Assembly (NCBI GenBank): GCA_947478845.1
Contig: CANJXC010000001.1
Span: forward strand, 186,001-250,000
DNA length: 64,000 nucleotides
Direction of reading: 5' to 3'
DNA from: Spirochaetales bacterium
GTDB taxonomy: Bacteria > Spirochaetota > Spirochaetia > JABEVK01
The notes under the pieces are model-generated. The model was not told where the DNA came from. It made no database searches and saw only the letters and a program-made list of their open reading frames with translations. Every line of letters begins with the position of its first letter. Positions within the stretch are counted from its first letter, which is position 1. This document shows positions 7,852 to 64,000 of this stretch, one piece after another. The translations under genes and the position numbers were made by a program.

Positions 7852-8045
7852 GCTGGTTCCACCCACTAAAAGTTTTGACGTGGAGTGCGCAGCGGCGAGA
7901 GGGGCGCTCGCGACTCTCGCGAAGGGATCTTGATCGCTTATGCGAGAGGAGTGAGCGCCCCTCTCGCCGCGAGCAGATTCAAGAAATCTCCTCACGAACA
8001 ACACCCCTGACGAAACATCAGGGAATAATCTGGGTGGAACCAGCA
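7852..8045 (-). ncRNA. Retron msr-msd non-coding RNA
   Basis: The ends are a perfect 14-bp inverted repeat, 8031-8044 (a1) and 7852-7865 (a2). Read on the minus strand, between them lie two small msr-like hairpins: 8005-8023 (6-bp stem, 7-nt loop) and 7971-7993 (8 bp around one mismatch). A long msd-like hairpin follows at 7892-7970: an 18-bp perfect stem (7892-7909 with 7953-7970), an internal loop, a 7-bp stem and an apical hairpin containing two GATC sites. A G directly follows a1 (position 8030) and could be the branching guanosine. A promoter ends just upstream and the RT gene begins 23 bases downstream, so order and structure fit a retron. The exact msd boundaries are not determined. 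Confidence 0.9.
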
Positions 8046-8052
8046 AGAATAC

Positions 8053-8081
8053 ATTATTGATGGAAGACCCCATTCATGCAA
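8053..8081 (-). promoter_or_regulatory. Promoter of the retron ncRNA/operon
   Basis: On the minus strand a -35-like TTGCAT (8076-8081) is followed after 17 bp by AATAAT (8053-8058), five of six matches to the -10 consensus. The expected transcription start is about 8045-8047, one to three bases before the a1 repeat of the ncRNA. This places the 5' end of the transcript where a retron ncRNA should begin. The RT operon is probably transcribed from here too, by read-through. Confidence 0.65.
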
Positions 8082-8148
8082 CCATTTGTAATCCCTGAAT
8101 GCTACGCCCGAGGTGGAGTCGTGGCTCGAAGGTCGGTTGAGTCATGAT

Positions 8149-8790
8149 TCAGCGACCACCACCAGAACCTAGTCTTGCGGACTGCTTCTGACTCAGTGCC
8201 TCCAGATCGTTGATGACCTGCTTGGCTGCTCCGGGTCCAGCATCGGTTGCAGCAGCCACGGCTGCCTGGAAACCCTCGAACGAGTAGTAGGCTCGCCGCG
8301 AATGAGTTTCGTCGAAAAAAGCAAAATGATCGAGTTGCTCAAATAACCCGATGGGAGAAATCATCGGCTGCAGTTCAAACTCAACCGGAGCCATTGAATC
8401 CCTGCGGTATGGACTCGTTGCGGGAAAGAGGATACCCATCCACTCAAGAAGTCGCTGAAAAGGTACCTCAATGTGAACCATCCAGAGTTGACGACGTAAG
8501 GTGATAGCCGAAGTCCCGTCGCTAGCCTCCTCGAGAACTGGCATTTGTTCGGGCAAGAAGCCAACTGAGCGGAACGAATCAACCGCGACCGAGGCGATGG
8601 TGTGCTGAGAGCTGACCGAAGTCTTCTTGCCCAAGATGTTGTTCTCGACAACTTCGGTACCGAGGTCGAACTGTGAGTCGTGGGCCATAAGTTCCATGAC
8701 TTTCGTGAGGTCCTCGAGCATCATCGTGCGACTGTTGTGGACACCCGAACTGCCGGTTCGGAGCCCGAAGTCAGGTTCAGTTGTGGGCAT
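8149..8790 (-). CDS. Hypothetical protein, N-terminus resembling BrxA (DUF1819)
   Basis: A 213-residue protein from ATG 8790, preceded by a good GAGGAAACC site. An upstream in-frame ATG at 8817 has no such site. The stretch MMLEDLTKVMEL, followed by ENNILGKKTS and a run of helix, resembles the start of BrxA/DUF1819 proteins of BREX systems. The rest does not clearly match, so this is tentative. The C-terminus is Gly/Ser-rich. It begins 46 bases after the preceding gene and ends about 70 bases before the retron promoter, so it may belong to the same defence locus. Confidence 0.65.
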   Translation of the reverse strand: MPTTEPDFGLRTGSSGVHNSRTMMLEDLTKVMELMAHDSQFDLGTEVVENNILGKKTSVSSQHTIASVAVDSFRSVGFLPEQMPVLEEASDGTSAITLRRQLWMVHIEVPFQRLLEWMGILFPATSPYRRDSMAPVEFELQPMISPIGLFEQLDHFAFFDETHSRRAYYSFEGFQAAVAAATDAGPGAAKQVINDLEALSQKQSARLGSGGGR

Positions 8791-8835
8791 GGTTTCCTCT
8801 GGAGCGGAGTCTAGCATGGACCGCGAAGGTTGAAG

Positions 8836-9780
8836 TCACAACGAGTATCCTTCCCCGCTGAGAACACTTGTGGCCCATTCGGATCTGTTCCTCGACCAAA
8901 TCGCGTAATTGAGCGCGAGGCCCGGGATGTCGTGCATGGGATTCGGAAGAAACGACACATAGGCAAGCCCGGTGTGATCTGCGCCTGTGGTCCAAGCGCC
9001 AAAGTGAGGCACTAGGTCACGACACTCCTGCTCGCGCACGTTCAGGAGATTGGCTAGTCGAGTCGCCTCTGCAGAGTCGCGGAAGCCGAAGGGCAGTTGC
9101 AGCAGGCAAAAGAGCCCGCCCCCCAGTTCGGGGTGCGGCTGGTCCGTCTGGAGCTGCAAGAAGGCTGTCTTCCCGGGATGAGTTGCGGCACTAGTGGCAC
9201 CGGCGACGAGGCCAAACTCCGCTGAGAACCCTTTCGAGTCAGCAAAACAGACACAATGCCGAGACAATGCGTCTCGAACCTGGACAAAGTCAGCCTGTCC
9301 CCATTTGGAGCTGCCCTTCGCCGGTTGTTGTTCATTGAACGTGCGACGCATTCCGCCAAACAAAGCCTCGGTTGAACAGAGAATGTTGAACATCAAGAGC
9401 GGCAGGTGCAAGGTTTTCCAGGCGGACTCTCCCTCGTAGACTGTCAGACGTGAGCAGATCGTGACTCTTCGTTCGGCAAAAGTGAAAGCACTGAGGGCCG
9501 CAAAGCTGTTCATGGCGACGGCAGCCTGTTCGGAATCCAGTATTTGAGTGAGCGGCTCGGGAATCTCTGTCGTGATAGTCACAAATGCTTGAACTCGATC
9601 GTTTCCCATTTGTCCTGATGGCGGCGGCAAGACCTCAAGTCGCATGGTGTAGTTGCCATGGTCCGCAGCAATCGCCATCGGAGTACGCTTCACTCTCACA
9701 GAGGTTGGTCTCAGGACCACTTCCAAGTCCTTGAGCGGCACTCCGAGATCTTCCGCCGTTTGCTTCTTGCTGAAGAACAT
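8836..9780 (-). CDS. Hypothetical protein of the retron locus
   Basis: A 314-residue protein with no recognised domain. It has no signal peptide or membrane helix. It appears to be alpha/beta, with a C-terminal part that could be a small chaperone-like fold (speculative). Its ATG directly follows the stop of the 39-residue gene upstream (TAA then ATG), so the two are almost certainly translationally coupled. Together with the 213-residue gene downstream it forms a three-gene unit on the same strand as the retron operon. Confidence 0.72.
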   Translation of the reverse strand: MFFSKKQTAEDLGVPLKDLEVVLRPTSVRVKRTPMAIAADHGNYTMRLEVLPPPSGQMGNDRVQAFVTITTEIPEPLTQILDSEQAAVAMNSFAALSAFTFAERRVTICSRLTVYEGESAWKTLHLPLLMFNILCSTEALFGGMRRTFNEQQPAKGSSKWGQADFVQVRDALSRHCVCFADSKGFSAEFGLVAGATSAATHPGKTAFLQLQTDQPHPELGGGLFCLLQLPFGFRDSAEATRLANLLNVREQECRDLVPHFGAWTTGADHTGLAYVSFLPNPMHDIPGLALNYAIWSRNRSEWATSVLSGEGYSL

Positions 9781-52187: not shown

Positions 52188-52631
52188 ATGAAACTTTCAT
52201 TGTATGAACAACCTGTCTCCCGACTTCTCCCCAGGGAAAAACTGCAATCTACCGGCGCCACCGGACTTTCGGACCGTGAACTTCTTCAACTGGTCCTAGG
52301 AAGCGGCAACCGGGGACTCCCTGTTGAGCATCTGGCTACAAGGGTTCTTGACCTTTTAGACCGCTGGGGACCAGATCTGGATGAGGGACTTCTGGGCACA
52401 GTTGAAGGTATTGGCCCCGCGAAACAGGCTCAGCTAACGGCCGTCTTGGAGCTAGTTCGGCGTTGGGGACGCCCGCCCACTTTGAGAATACATGCCCCGG
52501 CAGACCTCTATCCGCGCTTGGTACATCTTGCTGATCGTCCGCAAGAAGTTTTCGTCGCAGCGACTCTCAATGGTGCCCATGAATTGCTGACTATCCACAC
52601 GGTAACCATCGGGCTGCTGAACCGAACCCTA
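52188..52631 (+). pseudogene. radC: radC, 5' part, interrupted by island 2
   Basis: The first 148 codons match RadC (SDRELLQLVLGSGN, a helix-hairpin-helix and HELLTIHTVTIGLLNRTL). The protein normally continues into HPREVF and the JAB-type metalloprotease centre. Instead the frame enters foreign sequence after the Leu codon ending at 52631 and stops at 52718. The conserved catalytic half is missing here and is expected beyond the right edge of the window, on the far side of the island. Confidence 0.85.
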
Positions 52632-52675
52632 ACCTTATCCTTGTCAAGTAGTGTTTTTGATACTAGACTCTTGTC

Positions 52676-54394
52676 ATGGTTGGAATCTACTGCCGAGTAT
52701 CGACGAAGCGACAAATGAAGGCGAATGCAGAAGGTGACGCTGACGAACTTGGCTCGCTGCAAGTACAAATGTCCCAAGGAATCAGCTTCGCCAATTCCCT
52801 CGGTGAATCATATGAAGTCTACAAGGAACAGAAGTCCGGGAAGAATATCGACCGGCAAGATTACCTCCGGCTAATGAAGGACATCAGCACCGGTCAGGTA
52901 AAAGCACTCTGGGTCAAGAAAGTAGATCGCTCCTCACGAGATTTCACCGACGGAGTTTCGCTCCTTCAAGCCCTCCAACTTCACAAAGTTCGACTCTTCG
53001 AGGGTTGCCAAAACAACTCGGAAATAGACCTAACCGATGCTTCAGCGGTAGCAATGACGCAAATAAAATATGTCTTTGCCGAACTTGAAAGAAAGACAAT
53101 TGAGCAGCGTACCGACGAGTTCCTGAAGAAGATGATAGATGCAGGGAGAAGGAAGTTCTGTTACGTCTACGGCTATCAGTATGAATATCGAGCCGACGGG
53201 AAGAAGTACCCAATAATTCAAGAAGTGGAAGCAGAGGTAGTGAAGCTCATCTACAAGATGTATGAAGATGGAAAGTCGTTCACTGACATAACGAGATTTC
53301 TAAATGAGTCAACAAACTACAAACCAAAAAAAACTGGCTGGAAATACAAGAGCGGTCCAAAAAAAGGACAGGTTCAAACGCCAAAGTTTGACGCCAATAC
53401 TATTTCGAAGATCCTACACCGACCAGAATACATTGGAAAGACGAAGGATACGAAGGGTAACCTAATTCCATCGATCTACCCAGCGATTATTATTGATGAA
53501 TTGGCATGGTTTCGGATTCAGGAAAGTATTGATCAAAACACATTGCTCCGGGTGCGAAAACATATCCATGTTGCTCAGAATTTGGTATCGGGTCTTGTTC
53601 GTTGCCCAAGATGCGGTGCTGGGTATTTCTTCCATAAGACAACAATGCGCCACGGCAAAGATGTTGAATACAACACATACATGCATAAAGCATTCACGGA
53701 GACACAGCGAGCTTGCGAGAACTCCCCCAAAAACTTGGTTGCGCACTACCTTGATAGCCTAGTCATCCATATTTATGAAACACTCATCCTTAACCGAGCC
53801 GACTTCCTCAAGTTCGCTCAAAGGCAAAAGTCAGAGATCCTTCTGACAATCGCAAAGCTGAATGAACAGGCTGAAGAAATCGAAAAGGAACTCGAAGCTG
53901 TAAAGCAAGAGCAGAACCGACTCATCGCCGCAATTATTAAAGGGTCAATTGATGAAGAAGATGCTGTAGTCTGGAAAGTCAAACTCAAGAAGCAGGCAAG
54001 TATGCTTTCTGACAAGGCATTGTCGATGAGATCGGAAGCCCGAATGCTTACCACAAACGAACACGCTGCTTTCAGGATATTGCAGGAAGAGGAAATGCTC
54101 AGCTTCAATAAATTGTCGGTAAAGCAGCAGAGAGAGCTGCTGGGCGCACGGCTTCACCTCGAACTTGAAGCGGGTGTCCTAACAATCACCTCACTTATCG
54201 GAAGCAAATTCTGTCTCGATGTTTCGAAGTTCAAAGCCAAGTGCGATCATGTTGAGAAGACTCTCGCTGATAACCCAAAGCTGTTCTACGGAAAAAACGT
54301 TGCTCCGAACGACCAAGCTTATCAAAAAAATCGACATCGTCTTTGGGTTTTGAAGTACATTCAGCTTTATGGACGCAAGATCACCTATCTATAG
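52676..54394 (+). CDS. Large serine recombinase (integrase of island 2)
   Basis: A 572-residue recombinase. The resolvase domain (about 1-150) has the nucleophile in IYCRVSTKRQ and the Arg-rich KKVDRSSRDF. The Recombinase DNA-binding domain follows (about 170-310, YGYQYEYRADGKK to LHRPEYIGKT). A zinc ribbon (CPRCGAGYFFH, distal C in RACEN) and a coiled coil (about 385-430) complete the LSR layout. It begins 45 bases after the radC break, as expected for the integrase at the end of its own element. Confidence 0.95.
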   Translation: MVGIYCRVSTKRQMKANAEGDADELGSLQVQMSQGISFANSLGESYEVYKEQKSGKNIDRQDYLRLMKDISTGQVKALWVKKVDRSSRDFTDGVSLLQALQLHKVRLFEGCQNNSEIDLTDASAVAMTQIKYVFAELERKTIEQRTDEFLKKMIDAGRRKFCYVYGYQYEYRADGKKYPIIQEVEAEVVKLIYKMYEDGKSFTDITRFLNESTNYKPKKTGWKYKSGPKKGQVQTPKFDANTISKILHRPEYIGKTKDTKGNLIPSIYPAIIIDELAWFRIQESIDQNTLLRVRKHIHVAQNLVSGLVRCPRCGAGYFFHKTTMRHGKDVEYNTYMHKAFTETQRACENSPKNLVAHYLDSLVIHIYETLILNRADFLKFAQRQKSEILLTIAKLNEQAEEIEKELEAVKQEQNRLIAAIIKGSIDEEDAVVWKVKLKKQASMLSDKALSMRSEARMLTTNEHAAFRILQEEEMLSFNKLSVKQQRELLGARLHLELEAGVLTITSLIGSKFCLDVSKFKAKCDHVEKTLADNPKLFYGKNVAPNDQAYQKNRHRLWVLKYIQLYGRKITYL

Positions 54395-59680: not shown

Positions 59681-59719
59681 GGCTGACCTGTTGGGATCAA
59701 AAGACCCATCAGGTCAGCC
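59681..59719. repeat. Strong hairpin between convergent genes
   Basis: A 10-bp perfect stem (59681-59690 with 59710-59719), one mismatch and four further pairs, closing on a 9-base loop. It overlaps the last codons of the minus-strand gene at 59714 and lies 40 bases past the plus-strand stop. There is no T run, so it is a factor-dependent terminator or 3' end stabiliser at best. Confidence 0.5.
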
Positions 59720-60175
59720 CCCGCTCTGTAACAGGTGGCACAAAATAATGTATCTATAGCTTTTCAGACAAAAATTGTTTTTCGATTGGAGCAATAGCGG
59801 CTGCCATTGCGCGAACAGATCGAGATTTCGAAGGCAGATCCGACGATCAACCTCGTCTGCAGTGTCGCAACGGGCTTTGGCGGCGTTGAGGTCGTAGATC
59901 GCTTCGGGAATGCCATACTCCTTCTCCTCAACGATTTCGAAAGCGTTTGAAGGGGATTCGCCGAGTATCAGATCGTGATCTTCACCATGGTGGTACACAT
60001 GGAGCTTGTATTCCTCCAGCATGATTTCGTTTCCTTTACGGCGGTATATCGATTTACACCAGCCGAATTCCTGTCCAGTTTCCCTGCCAATTAAGAATTT
60101 GAAGCGGTATTTTTCTGTCAGTTCAAACGGGTCAAGTTCGTCGTCGATATCAAAGTAGTCAGAGGGTTCTTCCAT
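59714..60175 (-). CDS. Hypothetical acidic protein of island 2
   Basis: A 153-residue protein. The first 100 residues are acidic with short strands (EEYKLHVYHHGEDHDLIL); the end is helical with several cysteines. No ribosome site is strong and no family is recognised. It may be translated with the stand-alone recombinase-like gene, 91 bases upstream on the same strand. Confidence 0.5.
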   Translation of the reverse strand: MEEPSDYFDIDDELDPFELTEKYRFKFLIGRETGQEFGWCKSIYRRKGNEIMLEEYKLHVYHHGEDHDLILGESPSNAFEIVEEKEYGIPEAIYDLNAAKARCDTADEVDRRICLRNLDLFAQWQPLLLQSKNNFCLKSYRYIILCHLLQSGG

Positions 60176-60266
60176 GCAGATATCTTGTCAGAACCGTCCA
60201 AATAATGCCGCAATTCGGGCGATTCATGCAGGTTCTGTCACCATCAGGTTAGGCAATAGATCTGAA

Positions 60267-60674
60267 TTATGAGCCGTAGTTCTTGATTCGCTGCATGGCT
60301 TTCCACACTACGTCCCAAGGAACAATGGCAGGATAATGTTGGGAAGGCAGGTATTCACCATCCTGCCAGACCCGACCGCCGAAAATGGGGCGGATTGAAC
60401 CAAGTAGCGTTTTTTGGATAAATCGCTTCCCGGAACGATTGCGAATACCAGCCTCTGCGAGGTGCACAAGCAACAGCGGCACAAGAGTGCTGAGAGGTTG
60501 TGAGGAGGCAGCAACCGTTTCTATCACATACCGAATCACGGCAGCTTCAGACGGAACCTGTTCAATGGCTCCATTGGCTGCAAAGCGGAAACCGTACAAG
60601 CGAGATAATTTTAGAGGCGATGTCTTGGGTTGTTCGATTTCGATTTCCCCAAGCGGGGTTTGAATTGTGGGCAT
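60267..60674 (-). CDS. Stand-alone 'Recombinase' domain protein 1
   Basis: A 135-residue protein without the catalytic resolvase domain. Residues about 28-130 resemble the Recombinase DNA-binding domain of large serine recombinases: LYGFRFAANGAIEQV, EAAVIRYVIE, a helix with LAEAGIRNRSGKRF, and the final RPIFGGRVW with PAIVPWDVVWKAM. It also resembles a second protein at 61256. It could bind att-like DNA as a directionality factor or competitor of the integrase, or be a remnant under selection. Function is inferred from fold likeness only. Confidence 0.62.
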   Translation of the reverse strand: MPTIQTPLGEIEIEQPKTSPLKLSRLYGFRFAANGAIEQVPSEAAVIRYVIETVAASSQPLSTLVPLLLVHLAEAGIRNRSGKRFIQKTLLGSIRPIFGGRVWQDGEYLPSQHYPAIVPWDVVWKAMQRIKNYGS

Positions 60675-60679
60675 TCTGT

Positions 60680-60705
60680 ATCTTGGCGGCAGACAATGCC
60701 AAGAT
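60680..60705. repeat. Hairpin directly upstream of stand-alone recombinase gene 1
   Basis: An 8-bp perfect stem (60680-60687 with 60698-60705) and 10-base loop, ending six bases before the ATG at 60674 on the minus strand. Its 3' arm includes the only possible ribosome site, so translation may be controlled by this fold, or it may be a protein-binding palindrome. Confidence 0.5.
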
Positions 60706-60713
60706 GCCGATTC

Positions 60714-61046
60714 TCAGATATCTTCGGCAAGCATCACCGTAATCGACGGAGTACCATCGACTTCCATAAAGATGTCACGGGGACCATTGGGCAACGGATA
60801 GTCTTTCAATTTGATCATCGAAGGATCATCCTTCAAACCGCGAATCAATGTCCGTAATGCAGTGAAGAATTTCAGCAACTCAGCATCTCTGTCAACTTCG
60901 AATTCAGCTTCCAGATTGAAGCTGATTAGTGTCAAAACTGGGAACCCTGCTTGAATCGCGACAAGTGTGACGTCGATAAGAACTCCGTCCAAGAGTGCAT
61001 CTTCTCTCGAATACTCTGAAATGACGTCGCCAAACAAGTCGTCCAT
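60714..61046 (-). CDS. DUF6573-like hypothetical protein
   Basis: A 110-residue protein. The start (DDLFGDVISEYSREDALLDGVLIDVT and then AIQAGFPVLTL) recalls DUF6573-type proteins of mobile elements, which share a tyrosine/arginine-(Q/D)A--DGVL-DV motif. No activity is known for them. It ends 39 bases before the start of stand-alone recombinase gene 1. Confidence 0.6.
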   Translation of the reverse strand: MDDLFGDVISEYSREDALLDGVLIDVTLVAIQAGFPVLTLISFNLEAEFEVDRDAELLKFFTALRTLIRGLKDDPSMIKLKDYPLPNGPRDIFMEVDGTPSITVMLAEDI

Positions 61047-61255
61047 GCAGCACCTCTCAAGTGCAATATATTCCGATGATTTGGAGTGTCAATCGCATTT
61101 CTGTGGGGAATCTCAAAAATTCGAATTCCCTCCAAAACCGCGTTTGCTGGCATTTTGGCGAACCGTTGCGGAGGTCGATGGAAGTTCATGGATTTATAAT
61201 TTAAATACGAATCCCGCCCCCGTAGTGCAAAAACGGGGGGTGGCGATGCCCATTT

Positions 61256-61675
61256 TCAGATGAACTTTTCGCGTTTAAGTCTTTTCCATGCCAATTTAAA
61301 CTTGGACGCGCTTACGATTTCTGGATACCCAAAAGTACGCACCAAAATCCCCAAGGAGTTGACTTCCAAACCCGCATAGATTGGGCGGCACAAAAGTGCG
61401 AGGGTCTTGGGACTCCATAACCTCTTGCTTCTGTTTAAAATTCTCGGGTTCGCTCGTCGGTACTCATTGGCGATCAAGGTTAGTATCTTCTCGCAGCTCA
61501 AAAATGGAATGTCGGCGAGCTGCGATATTACATTCTCGATGACCGCCGCTTCTTTCTCGACGACGACTATTTCGCCGTCGTCAGCAAAGGCGTAGCCATA
61601 AATCTTGGAGCGCACGGCGGCGGCTCGGGGGGACTCGTTCAGAATCATGTCTGGATGGTGTTCGAGGATGGTCAT
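61256..61675 (-). CDS. Stand-alone 'Recombinase' domain protein 2
   Basis: A 139-residue protein that aligns with protein 1 (60267-60674) over about 105 residues: S-YG[FY]-FA-[DN]G-I, EAAVI--VI and RPI[FY]-G. Like it, it lacks the resolvase catalytic domain and the zinc ribbon. About 210 bases without a gene separate it from the DUF6573-like gene. Two intact paralogues argue against random decay of a single integrase. Confidence 0.6.
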   Translation of the reverse strand: MTILEHHPDMILNESPRAAAVRSKIYGYAFADDGEIVVVEKEAAVIENVISQLADIPFLSCEKILTLIANEYRRANPRILNRSKRLWSPKTLALLCRPIYAGLEVNSLGILVRTFGYPEIVSASKFKLAWKRLKREKFI

Positions 61676-61839
61676 GATCTATCTTGATTGGGAACGGACG
61701 AATCGCATCAAGATTTTATCTTTTGTTAGCGATTTCCGAACCGAGGTTCCGATTCGAACACGTCGAGACCCCTTACTGTACACATCGTGGGCACTAAGTC
61801 CCATCAGATAGCGGGTCAGCCCAGATCGGAAGAATCCGC

Positions 61840-61874: not shown

Positions 61875-62075
61875 ATGACAAAGAATGAGGTCCTGACCCT
61901 TCGGGTCGAGCGCTCCCTTGGCGACCTTCTTTCCGAGAACGCGGACTTAATCGGTCTCACACGGGCGGACTACCTCAGACTGGTCTTGAGAGCGGCGTCG
62001 AAGATTGATCCCAAATTGCTTCTGACCTCATGGGAAACCGAAGTCCAATCGCAATTGTTGCGGAAACACCAATGA
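61875..62075 (+). CDS. Ribbon-helix-helix regulator of the BREX-like operon
   Basis: A 66-residue protein: strand LTLRVERSLGDLL then helices, like CopG/Arc-type repressors. It is the first gene of the operon, its stop overlapping the BrxF-like start. Such proteins usually repress their own promoter, and small DNA-binding regulators are common at the head of BREX operons. Confidence 0.6.
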   Translation: MTKNEVLTLRVERSLGDLLSENADLIGLTRADYLRLVLRAASKIDPKLLLTSWETEVQSQLLRKHQ

Positions 62076-62473
62076 GAAACCGAATCGAGTACACGGACAG
62101 ATACCCCGAAGAACTCGCCGCGAGACCCGGATTTGTCGTCTTGGACGTTGGGTCGATTCTTTCAGCGACCTACTCAGAGTCACCCAGTGACCTCTCTGCA
62201 GACTCCTACACCGCAGTCTCTGCAGCACTTCGCCACCAGATTCCGGAAGGGAGCAAACACCTGCTACTTACGAATGTTGGAATCCTTTGCGAACCGGAAC
62301 TCCACCTCAACCCTTCAAAACTGCTGCTGGATCTCGCACTGGACTTCGAGGTCCTTCTCTATTGGACCTTTCCGGTGATCAACGCCAAGCGTCTGGTCTG
62401 GGATACAGCGGCACCCCAATACGGAATAGAATTTGAACCCACCATCTTGCAACGAATGGAGCAACAAAATTGA
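62072..62473 (+). CDS. BrxF-like protein lacking the P-loop
   Basis: A 133-residue protein from ATG 62072, overlapping the previous stop (ATGA). The segments VLDVGSILSATYSE, LLLTNVGILCEPELHL and LVWDTAAPQYGIEF resemble the middle and end of the BREX type 3 ATPase BrxF, whose corresponding segments are LS--LLE, EILFDPEL and L-YA-PGHPEY. The N-terminal Walker A (GxxGxGKT) of BrxF is absent. It is probably a non-ATPase variant. Its position just before a BrxC-like gene supports the reading. Confidence 0.55.
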   Translation: MRNRIEYTDRYPEELAARPGFVVLDVGSILSATYSESPSDLSADSYTAVSAALRHQIPEGSKHLLLTNVGILCEPELHLNPSKLLLDLALDFEVLLYWTFPVINAKRLVWDTAAPQYGIEFEPTILQRMEQQN

Positions 62474-64000
62474 AGTACTCGGAACTTATTCACTTTGAGC
62501 CAATCACCTCGGTCATCAAGTTGGTCACCACTGACACTAGAAAGGTCCAAGAAAACCTCGTCAAGTCTTATGTCTTCTCGAAAAAGATGCTGGACGCGAT
62601 ACCGGAAGTGATCTCCAAGAACCTCGATACTGACTCTGCACTTGAACAGAAGGGTATCCAAGTTGTTGGTAGCTACGGGACGGGCAAGAGCCACCTTATG
62701 GCGATCATTGGCGCAATTGCCGAAGATGCCTCCCTTTTGGATCTTGTAACAGAAGAGTCCATCAAACCTTCCCTTCTGCGTTTTGCCGGAAAATATAAGA
62801 CGCTTCGTTTTGAGGTCGGCGTTGATAAGCCGCTGAAGGATGTTCTCTTTTTTCAGCTTGAACGCTTCTTGAAAGCCAATGGCGTTGCTTTCACATTTGA
62901 CCCTGAGAACTCGCAGAGCTGGAAGGAACAGCTAAAAGAAATGATTGCCGCCTTCGAAGCGGTTTTTCCGGATAAGCACATCCTCGTGGTGATCGACGAA
63001 CTCCTTGAATACTTGCAAGGGCGCAATCCCCAGTCTCTCAACAACGACCTGATGCTTCTCCGTCAGGTTGGTGAAGTGTGCGATGGGACTCGTTTCAAGA
63101 TCATCTTCGGGGTTCAGGAACTGCTCTACCGGAGCACTTCTCTTCAGTTCGCCGCGACCATGCTTGGAAAGGTGGAAGACCGCTTTGAAGACCTGATCAT
63201 AAACAAGGACGATGTGGCTTACGTGGTCAAGGAACGGCTTCTGAAGAAAGACGCGCATCAGAAACAGGCAATCCGCGACCACCTCGTGAAGTTTGGACAT
63301 CTCTTCGACGGGATCAACACGAGTCTGAACGAGTACGTGGACCTCTTTCCTGTTCATCCATCCTATGTGAGCACGTTCGAAAGAATAAAAGTTGGCAAGT
63401 CGCAAAGGGAAATCCTGAAAACCCTGAGCGCACGCTTTGAGGCTATCGCTTCTACCGATGTGCCAACGGATCGTCCCGGATTGGTCTCCTACGATACCTA
63501 CTGGGAGGACATCAACTCTACTGCCTCCATGCTCATCATTCCGGATGTGAGGACTGTCAAAGACAAGATGGACACCATCTACGAGCGAATCGACAGTCAC
63601 TTTGTGGCAGGGCGAGCCAACAAAAAGGCTATCGCAAAGCAGATCGCAAACGCCCTCGCAGTCAAAGTCCTTTGCGATGATTTGGACAAACACAACGGCG
63701 CGGGTGCTCGGGACTTGAAGGAAGACCTGTGCCAGACTATCTCCGGCATTGATGACCCTGAATTACTCACCCAGACAATCGAGACCACGGCAAACCAGCT
63801 GAAGTCGGCGACCTCTGGGCAGTTTGTGGATCAGGACACCGTATCGAACCAGTTCTATGTGCGAACCGAGGGTGGAATCAACATTGCCCAAATTGTTCGA
63901 GATTACGCTGACAACGTTCTGAAGAAGAACCTCCCGGTTAGTGACCAGTACTTCTTTGAGTTTCTGCAGTTCGTACTCGCAATAAAGCAGGACCCGTACA
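62470..64000 (+). CDS. BrxC-like P-loop ATPase (DUF6079 type), open at right edge
   Basis: An open frame of 510 codons from TTG 62470, which overlaps the stop of the preceding gene and has a GGAG eight bases upstream; the frame is still open at the window end. The Walker A is VVGSYGTGKSH at about residues 65-75 and the Walker B is ILVVIDELLEYL at about 170-180. The opening KYSELIHFEPITSVIKL and the overall pattern match DUF6079/BrxC proteins of BREX phage-defence systems, which are about 1200 residues. Genes for a PglX-type methyltransferase and PglZ would be expected to the right. Confidence 0.78.
   Translation, partial: MKYSELIHFEPITSVIKLVTTDTRKVQENLVKSYVFSKKMLDAIPEVISKNLDTDSALEQKGIQVVGSYGTGKSHLMAIIGAIAEDASLLDLVTEESIKPSLLRFAGKYKTLRFEVGVDKPLKDVLFFQLERFLKANGVAFTFDPENSQSWKEQLKEMIAAFEAVFPDKHILVVIDELLEYLQGRNPQSLNNDLMLLRQVGEVCDGTRFKIIFGVQELLYRSTSLQFAATMLGKVEDRFEDLIINKDDVAYVVKERLLKKDAHQKQAIRDHLVKFGHLFDGINTSLNEYVDLFPVHPSYVSTFERIKVGKSQREILKTLSARFEAIASTDVPTDRPGLVSYDTYWEDINSTASMLIIPDVRTVKDKMDTIYERIDSHFVAGRANKKAIAKQIANALAVKVLCDDLDKHNGAGARDLKEDLCQTISGIDDPELLTQTIETTANQLKSATSGQFVDQDTVSNQFYVRTEGGINIAQIVRDYADNVLKKNLPVSDQYFFEFLQFVLAIKQDPY

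What the first reader, a model, noticed from the sequence alone, without database searches (positions are those of the whole stretch)
60267..61675. Two stand-alone DNA-binding domains of large serine recombinases
Both intact small genes match only the Recombinase domain (YGF-FA-G, EAAVI, RP-YG) and not the catalytic or zinc parts, and they are paralogues of each other on an element with a full LSR. They could compete with or steer the integrase at att sites, as a new kind of directionality factor or regulator.
Basis: inference. Interest (0 to 1): 0.75.

Follow-up and report, generated by a model that had tools for sequence, protein, structure and literature searches.

The report
Stand-alone serine-integrase DNA-binding domain proteins
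Two small genes on a 31-kb mobile element of a spirochaete encode only the DNA-recognition domain of a large serine integrase without its cutting part; close parallels beside integrases in other spirochaete elements suggest accessory factors that help control when such elements integrate or leave, but no function has been tested.

Summary
The genes at 60267-60674 (sRD1, 135 aa) and 61256-61675 (sRD2, 139 aa) are intact, share 34% identity (E 1e-12) and contain only the LSR recombinase domain (RD). Pfam alone is sub-threshold (E 0.22, 0.13). A profile of four non-window homologues scores them 63 and 50 bits (best of 1000 shuffles 5.6), and AlphaFold models match the RDs of solved serine integrases (Z 13.2 and 12.1; next unrelated fold 4.5 and 4.1). 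No catalytic or zinc remnants lie around them.

Five further stand-alone RDs turned up in four other genomes of the class, two of them named spirochaete MAGs. In four of six elements the sRD gene lies directly beside the integrase: twice a large serine recombinase, twice a TYROSINE integrase. The sRD beside an LSR and one beside a tyrosine integrase are 78% identical, under purifying selection. Two elements also carry a conserved LSR-like protein that lost its catalytic domain.

Best reading: small, basic, RD-derived DNA-binding accessory factors of integration/excision (Xis/RDF-like), possibly also regulators. Function is inferred.

The parts
60267..60674 (-). sRD1, stand-alone LSR recombinase domain, 135 aa, pI 9.75
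61256..61675 (-). sRD2, stand-alone LSR recombinase domain, 139 aa, pI 9.48
60714..61046 (-). DUF6573-like gene between the two, 39 nt upstream of sRD1 (probable operon with it)
   Evidence: E 0.00098, below cut-off; promoter-like TTGACA-16-TATATT at 61092-61065
59714..60175 (-). 153-aa gene of unknown function, downstream neighbour carrying the same CAAGATA box before its start
60672..60685 (-). CAAGATA-N4-ATG box at the start of sRD1
61673..61686 (-). CAAGATA-N4-ATG box at the start of sRD2
60173..60187 (-). CAAGATA-N5-ATG box at the start of the 153-aa gene
61213..61237 (-). terminator-like stem-loop after sRD2, which suggests that sRD2 is a separate transcription unit
   Evidence: consensus match only
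52676..54394 (+). full large serine recombinase, the presumed integrase of the element
   Evidence: PF00239 and PF07508 over cut-off
52629..52630 (.). CT core of attL inside radC; the right-hand core is at G000:C1:270032-270033 (L055:32-33)

Best explanation
sRD1 and sRD2 belong to a group of stand-alone recombinase-domain proteins that split off from large serine recombinases, lost the catalytic, zinc-ribbon and coiled-coil parts, and kept the helix-turn-helix-containing DNA-binding core. They most likely act as small, basic DNA-binding accessory factors of the mobile element, of the excisionase/directionality-factor type: they bind DNA at or beside the attachment sites and alter the nucleoprotein complex so that the integrase excises or is held back. 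Shown here: homology, fold, intactness, purifying selection in one clade, and gene adjacency to integrases of both chemistries. Inferred: DNA binding, the binding site and the effect on recombination. Because near-identical sRDs accompany an LSR in one element and a tyrosine integrase in another, action through DNA (att arms or an int-region operator) is more likely than action through contact with one integrase type.
For: RD fold by model and by profile. All seven are small (112-144 aa) and basic (pI 9.5-10.4), as are most described RDFs of LSRs ('small, basic proteins', PMC5025042). Direct neighbours of the integrase gene: G035, 86 nt upstream of an LSR whose 3' end overlaps tRNA-Asn; G191:C24, 32 nt downstream of an LSR; G191:C39 and G407:C5, directly downstream of a tyrosine integrase beside tRNA-Thr and tRNA-Leu. 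The sRD next to the LSR in G191 and the sRD next to the tyrosine integrase in G407 are 78% identical, with JC-corrected dN 0.14 against dS 1.9. One origin for all seven is not rejected (p-AU 0.53), and derivation of the window pair from the resident LSR is rejected (p-AU 0.04). No other excisionase candidate lies between tyrosine integrase and sRD in those elements.
Against: In the window, and in G068, the sRD genes are not next to an integrase. Three of the four adjacencies belong to one sRD clade, so there are about two independent lineages. LSR directionality factors studied so far act by protein contact with the integrase (PMC4111918), not through an RD. The N-terminal alphaE-beta6 linker that tracks the minor groove in LSRs looks degraded in sRD1 and sRD2 (predicted disordered, pLDDT mostly under 50). 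No binding site at att was identified. A recombinase domain alone might bind DNA weakly as a monomer.
Confidence: 0.42

Rival explanations
1. Transcriptional regulators of the element: the RD was co-opted as a helix-turn-helix repressor or activator that binds operators of its own gene and a few element genes (Cox-like proteins could do both this and excision).
For: A box AAGATA lies in the 30 nt upstream of only 3 of 56 window ORFs, exactly sRD1, sRD2 and the adjacent 153-aa gene; it also precedes the sRD gene in G068 and the G191/G407 clade, and a CAAGATA-N5-ATG box starts the gene that heads the tyrosine-recombinase operon at the right end of the window element (L054:16455-16469). Cluster near a replication-initiator-like HTH gene.
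Against: The box may be a start-site or -10-like signal and not an operator: it is also at two ordinary chromosomal gene starts (L083, L086) and sits where a ribosome-binding site would. The pattern was chosen after seeing three of the four sites. It does not explain adjacency to integrase genes.
Confidence: 0.3
2. Dominant-negative competitors: sRDs occupy integrase half-sites and block the resident or an incoming LSR, which gives element stability or exclusion of related elements.
For: The domain that recognises the inner att half-site in LSRs is retained (fold; role of the RD from PMC3783163); a full LSR is on the window element.
Against: sRDs are not derived from the resident LSR (p-AU 0.04); two elements with sRD next to the integrase use a tyrosine integrase; without the zinc domain a large part of the att contacts is missing (PMC3783163).
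Confidence: 0.1
3. Decaying fragments of LSR genes without function.
For: LSRs are common in these genomes, and the scores of sRD1/sRD2 to Pfam are weak.
Against: Intact frames in seven cases; no flanking catalytic or zinc remnants; dN/dS about 0.07 in the G191b/G407 pair; same gene position in different elements. Selection on sRD1/sRD2 themselves could not be measured, for want of close homologues.
Confidence: 0.07
4. DNA-binding parts of another process of the element, such as plasmid-like replication or partition.
For: In G068 the sRD sits beside a ribbon-helix-helix-like gene and a primase/helicase-like gene; in G407 the AAGATA box also lies upstream of a DnaD-like gene.
Against: Adjacency to integrases is commoner; there is no direct evidence for replication.
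Confidence: 0.08

Closest known systems
Large serine recombinases / serine integrases (A118/LI, Bxb1, phiC31 and others in the PDB)
   Same: Recombinase-domain fold and order of elements; best matches of both models (Z 12-13)
   Different: No catalytic resolvase domain, no zinc ribbon, no coiled coil; cannot recombine on their own
Recombination directionality factors of serine integrases (phiC31 gp3, Bxb1 gp47, SprB, CD1234, PexA)
   Same: Small proteins usually encoded on the same element as the integrase; most described ones are basic (PMC5025042)
   Different: Described ones act by protein contact with the integrase and share no sequence features (PMC6002521, PMC4111918); none is described there as an RD. 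Function of sRDs untested
Xis/Cox excisionases of tyrosine integrases
   Same: Small basic DNA-binding protein encoded directly next to the integrase at the element's end (G191:C39, G407:C5)
   Different: Different fold: an LSR recombinase domain and not the usual Xis fold (the latter from general knowledge)
Pfam PF07508 Recombinase
   Same: The only Pfam match; four of the five other stand-alone proteins are over the cut-off
   Different: sRD1 and sRD2 are below the curated cut-off, and the family is known mainly as a domain of full LSRs

Membership tests
Large serine recombinase (active enzyme) | N-terminal resolvase catalytic domain with nucleophilic serine (PF00239) | tested here: not met
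   No PF00239 match; no catalytic remnant by tblastn
Large serine recombinase (active enzyme) | Recombinase domain (PF07508 fold) | tested here: met
   Z 13.2 and 12.1 to serine integrases; profile 63 and 50 bits
Large serine recombinase (active enzyme) | Zinc ribbon and coiled coil | tested here: not met
   Proteins end after the RD; no PF13408 match; no flanking remnant
Pfam PF07508 Recombinase | Score over the curated cut-off of 21.1 bits | tested here: not met
   12.3 and 13.0 bits for sRD1/sRD2; homologues reach 31.8, 25.2, 43.8 and 37.7 bits, G035 20.6
Stand-alone RD group (this report) | 112-144 aa, RD only, basic, on an integrated element | tested here: met
Stand-alone RD group (this report) | Single origin, apart from LSR domains | tested here: inconclusive
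   Six of seven group together (82/69); all seven as one clade not rejected, p-AU 0.53; with a non-window profile sRD1/sRD2 score about as high as the best LSRs
Recombination directionality factor / excisionase | Small protein encoded on the same element as the integrase | tested here: met
   Window element bounded by the split radC; other elements at tRNAs
Recombination directionality factor / excisionase | Stimulates attL x attR recombination and/or inhibits attP x attB | not testable with these tools
   Needs a recombination assay
Recombination directionality factor / excisionase | Binds the integrase or its att DNA | not testable with these tools
   Needs EMSA or pull-down

The most novel reading that the evidence does not exclude
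A previously undescribed class of excisionase/directionality factor made from the DNA-binding domain of a serine integrase, which has been recruited to work with both serine and tyrosine integrases, in some elements together with a second, larger catalytic-less LSR derivative (RD, zinc ribbon and a new C-terminal domain).
Probability: 0.3. Interest if true: 0.82.

Novelty: new variant of a known kind. Interest (0 to 1): 0.62.

Why it matters
Directionality factors of serine integrases cannot be found by homology, because the known ones share no sequence features; this is a practical bottleneck. A recognisable, recurrent protein type next to integrases of both chemistries would give a searchable signature, a case of a recombinase's own DNA-binding domain reused as an accessory factor, and possibly switches for genome-engineering integrases. 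It also connects two otherwise separate recombination families, since the same accessory protein (78% identity) sits beside an LSR in one element and a tyrosine integrase in another.

Tried and rejected
Single-protein scans of GTDB contigs and viral contigs with sRD1, and of viral contigs with sRD2, found nothing; the profile of all stand-alone RDs gave no usable pattern in GTDB contigs and no relative in viral contigs; a profile of the three closest sRDs found only its own three members in GTDB contigs and none in viral contigs. tblastn in phages and plasmids gave mainly LSR domains; the one phage record hit by sRD1 (MT836003) is an LSR-type ORF on what looks like bacterial chromosome. A fragment explanation was tested with catalytic-domain and whole-LSR tblastn and found no remnants. 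I looked for the inverted-repeat arm of the predicted attP (AACACTACTT) near the sRD genes: no exact copy, only one site with a mismatch inside sRD1. Shared DNA words between the sRD-proximal regions of G407 and G191 are confined to the leader of the sRD gene. The C-terminal domain of the catalytic-less LSR was not found in viral contigs. Literature searches found no description of stand-alone RD proteins; the library is open-access only, so absence there is weak evidence.

Full report
WHAT IS THERE. The two ORFs are intact and encode 135 and 139 aa. Pfam finds only PF07508 Recombinase in both, below its cut-off but over nearly the whole profile; PHROGs gives an integrase family. The two proteins are 34% identical over 126 columns, E 1e-12. 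A profile built only from four stand-alone homologues of other elements scores them 63.3 and 50.2 bits, and the best of 1000 shuffled copies scores 5.6. AlphaFold models (pLDDT 85.4 and 82.7; roughly the first 20 residues disordered), made from an alignment that included LSR domains, match the recombinase domains of serine integrases with Z 13.2 and 12.1; unrelated folds drop to 4.5 and 4.1. In the PDB sequence search the best, though weak, hit of the profile is the same domain of the A118/LI integrase (E 0.3). Between them lies a DUF6573-like gene, and downstream a 153-aa gene of unknown function. A promoter-like site precedes the DUF6573-like gene and a terminator-like hairpin follows sRD2, so sRD2 and DUF6573-sRD1 are probably separate units.

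THE ELEMENT. radC is split. Its left part ends at 52629 next to the LSR gene 52676-54394, and its right part starts on the same contig at G000:C1:270034. Joining the flanks at a CT core gives a 223-codon uninterrupted radC frame; the element is 31,403 bp long. It carries the LSR, a BREX system (BrxC E 4e-148), the sRD cluster, and near the right end a tyrosine recombinase operon (L054:14502-15602).

RELATIVES. A search of 395 genomes of the class with the profile separates a few high-scoring stand-alone proteins from LSR domains with lower scores; a search of the order of G191 added one. In all, seven stand-alone RDs are known in six elements: window (two), G068, G035, G191:C39, G191:C24, G407:C5. 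Contig lengths and sequence identify G407 as Spirochaetae bacterium HGW-Spirochaetae-3 and G191 as Spirochaetales bacterium Zod_Metabat.296. In a phylum-wide sample of 345 genomes only the window's genome and G191 had stand-alone members above the threshold, so the type is rare.

GENE NEIGHBOURHOOD. G035: sRD 86 nt upstream of an LSR whose end overlaps tRNA-Asn. G191:C24: sRD 32 nt downstream of an LSR. G191:C39 and G407:C5: tRNA, tyrosine integrase, sRD, then a convergent gene for an LSR-like protein without catalytic domain. G068: element with a tyrosine integrase at tRNA-Met, sRD elsewhere in it beside a ribbon-helix-helix-like gene and a primase/helicase-like gene. The sRD beside the LSR (G191:C24) and the one beside the tyrosine integrase (G407) are 78% identical, with a dN/dS near 0.07 (dS is high, so this is approximate).

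THE CATALYTIC-LESS LSR. The two convergent proteins are homologous over 577 aligned columns (23%, E 2e-33). Their homology begins at the recombinase domain, continues through the zinc-ribbon region and ends with a shared C-terminal domain not seen in 242 other genomes of the order. No catalytic remnant lies upstream. This is an independent case of LSR DNA-binding parts kept without the catalytic part on tyrosine-integrase elements.

PHYLOGENY. Six of seven sRDs group apart from the LSR domains and the two catalytic-less proteins (82/69). sRD2 is a long branch of unsure place. All seven as one clade are not rejected (p-AU 0.53), nor is sRD1 with sRD2 (0.52); both with the resident LSR are rejected at p-AU 0.04. 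A single origin is therefore possible but not shown.

A SHARED START-SITE BOX. AAGATA occurs in the 30 nt before the start of exactly three of 56 window ORFs: sRD1, sRD2 and the 153-aa gene, as CAAGATA-N4..5-ATG. It also precedes the G068 sRD and, about 20 nt upstream, the G191/G407 sRDs. In the whole genome CAAGATA-N4..6-ATG occurs 14 times (reversed control 3), four of them in this element and all four at gene starts, the fourth heading the tyrosine-recombinase operon. The pattern was seen before it was tested, three of the four are the seeds, and two ordinary chromosomal genes have it too, so it may be an operator, a -10-like element of short-leader transcripts or an unusual ribosome-binding signal.

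MECHANISM. Shown: homology, fold, intactness, position, selection in one clade. Inferred: DNA binding and effect on recombination. Small basic proteins next to integrases are the usual look of excisionases (general knowledge) and of most described LSR directionality factors (PMC5025042). Because near-identical sRDs accompany integrases of both chemistries, action through DNA is more likely than through contact with one integrase. A regulator role is the main rival and could coexist with it. Known LSR directionality factors act by protein contact (PMC4111918) and have no shared sequence features (PMC6002521); I found none described as a recombinase domain, in an open-access library only.

VERDICT. 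Observation confirmed; interpretation partly supported. New variant of a known kind: the domain is known, its recurrent stand-alone use next to both kinds of integrase appears undescribed. Interest 0.62, because function remains inferred and the sample is small.

Noticed in passing
L017:~7869-9497 (+) and L065:9765-~11372 (-): Conserved LSR-like protein without catalytic domain (recombinase domain, zinc-ribbon region, new C-terminal domain with motif LPEWFYG), convergent to the sRD gene in two tyrosine-integrase elements.
   Followed up: partly
window 60173-60187, 60672-60685, 61673-61686 (-); L054:16455-16469 (-): CAAGATA-N4..5-ATG box at the starts of both sRD genes, the 153-aa gene and the first gene of the tyrosine-recombinase operon; no usual ribosome-binding site there. 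Also near sRD starts in other elements.
   Followed up: partly
L065:9308-9331 (+), L049:522-543 (-), L068:9983-10004 (+): In the G191/G407 clade the sRD leader holds an inverted repeat, CCATAGG-(AGGA...)-CCTATGG (weaker in L068), with the ribosome-binding site in the loop and the start codon in the stem: possible translational control.
   Followed up: no
window 52560-52740 and L055:1-60: The predicted attP has near-symmetric outer arms AACACTACTT / AAGTAGTGTT around the CT core, as expected of LSR zinc-domain motifs.
   Followed up: partly
window 62030-64000 and L054:1-14311: A BREX defence system (weak BrxF-like, BrxC and following genes) is the main cargo of the radC element.
   Followed up: no
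L054:14502-16493 (-): Tyrosine recombinase in an apparent three-gene operon near the right end of an element that also has an LSR; role unclear.
   Followed up: no
L065:9146-9247 (+): 33-codon ORF (MNLTPPAQRLLLRLCFESEAGLNLTLAYLSLIG) after a CAAGATA box between tyrosine integrase and sRD.
   Followed up: no
L018 (MT836003.1): A GenBank record named Bacteriophage sp. carries gyrase, citrate synthase and argininosuccinate-lyase-like genes and looks like bacterial chromosome.
   Followed up: no
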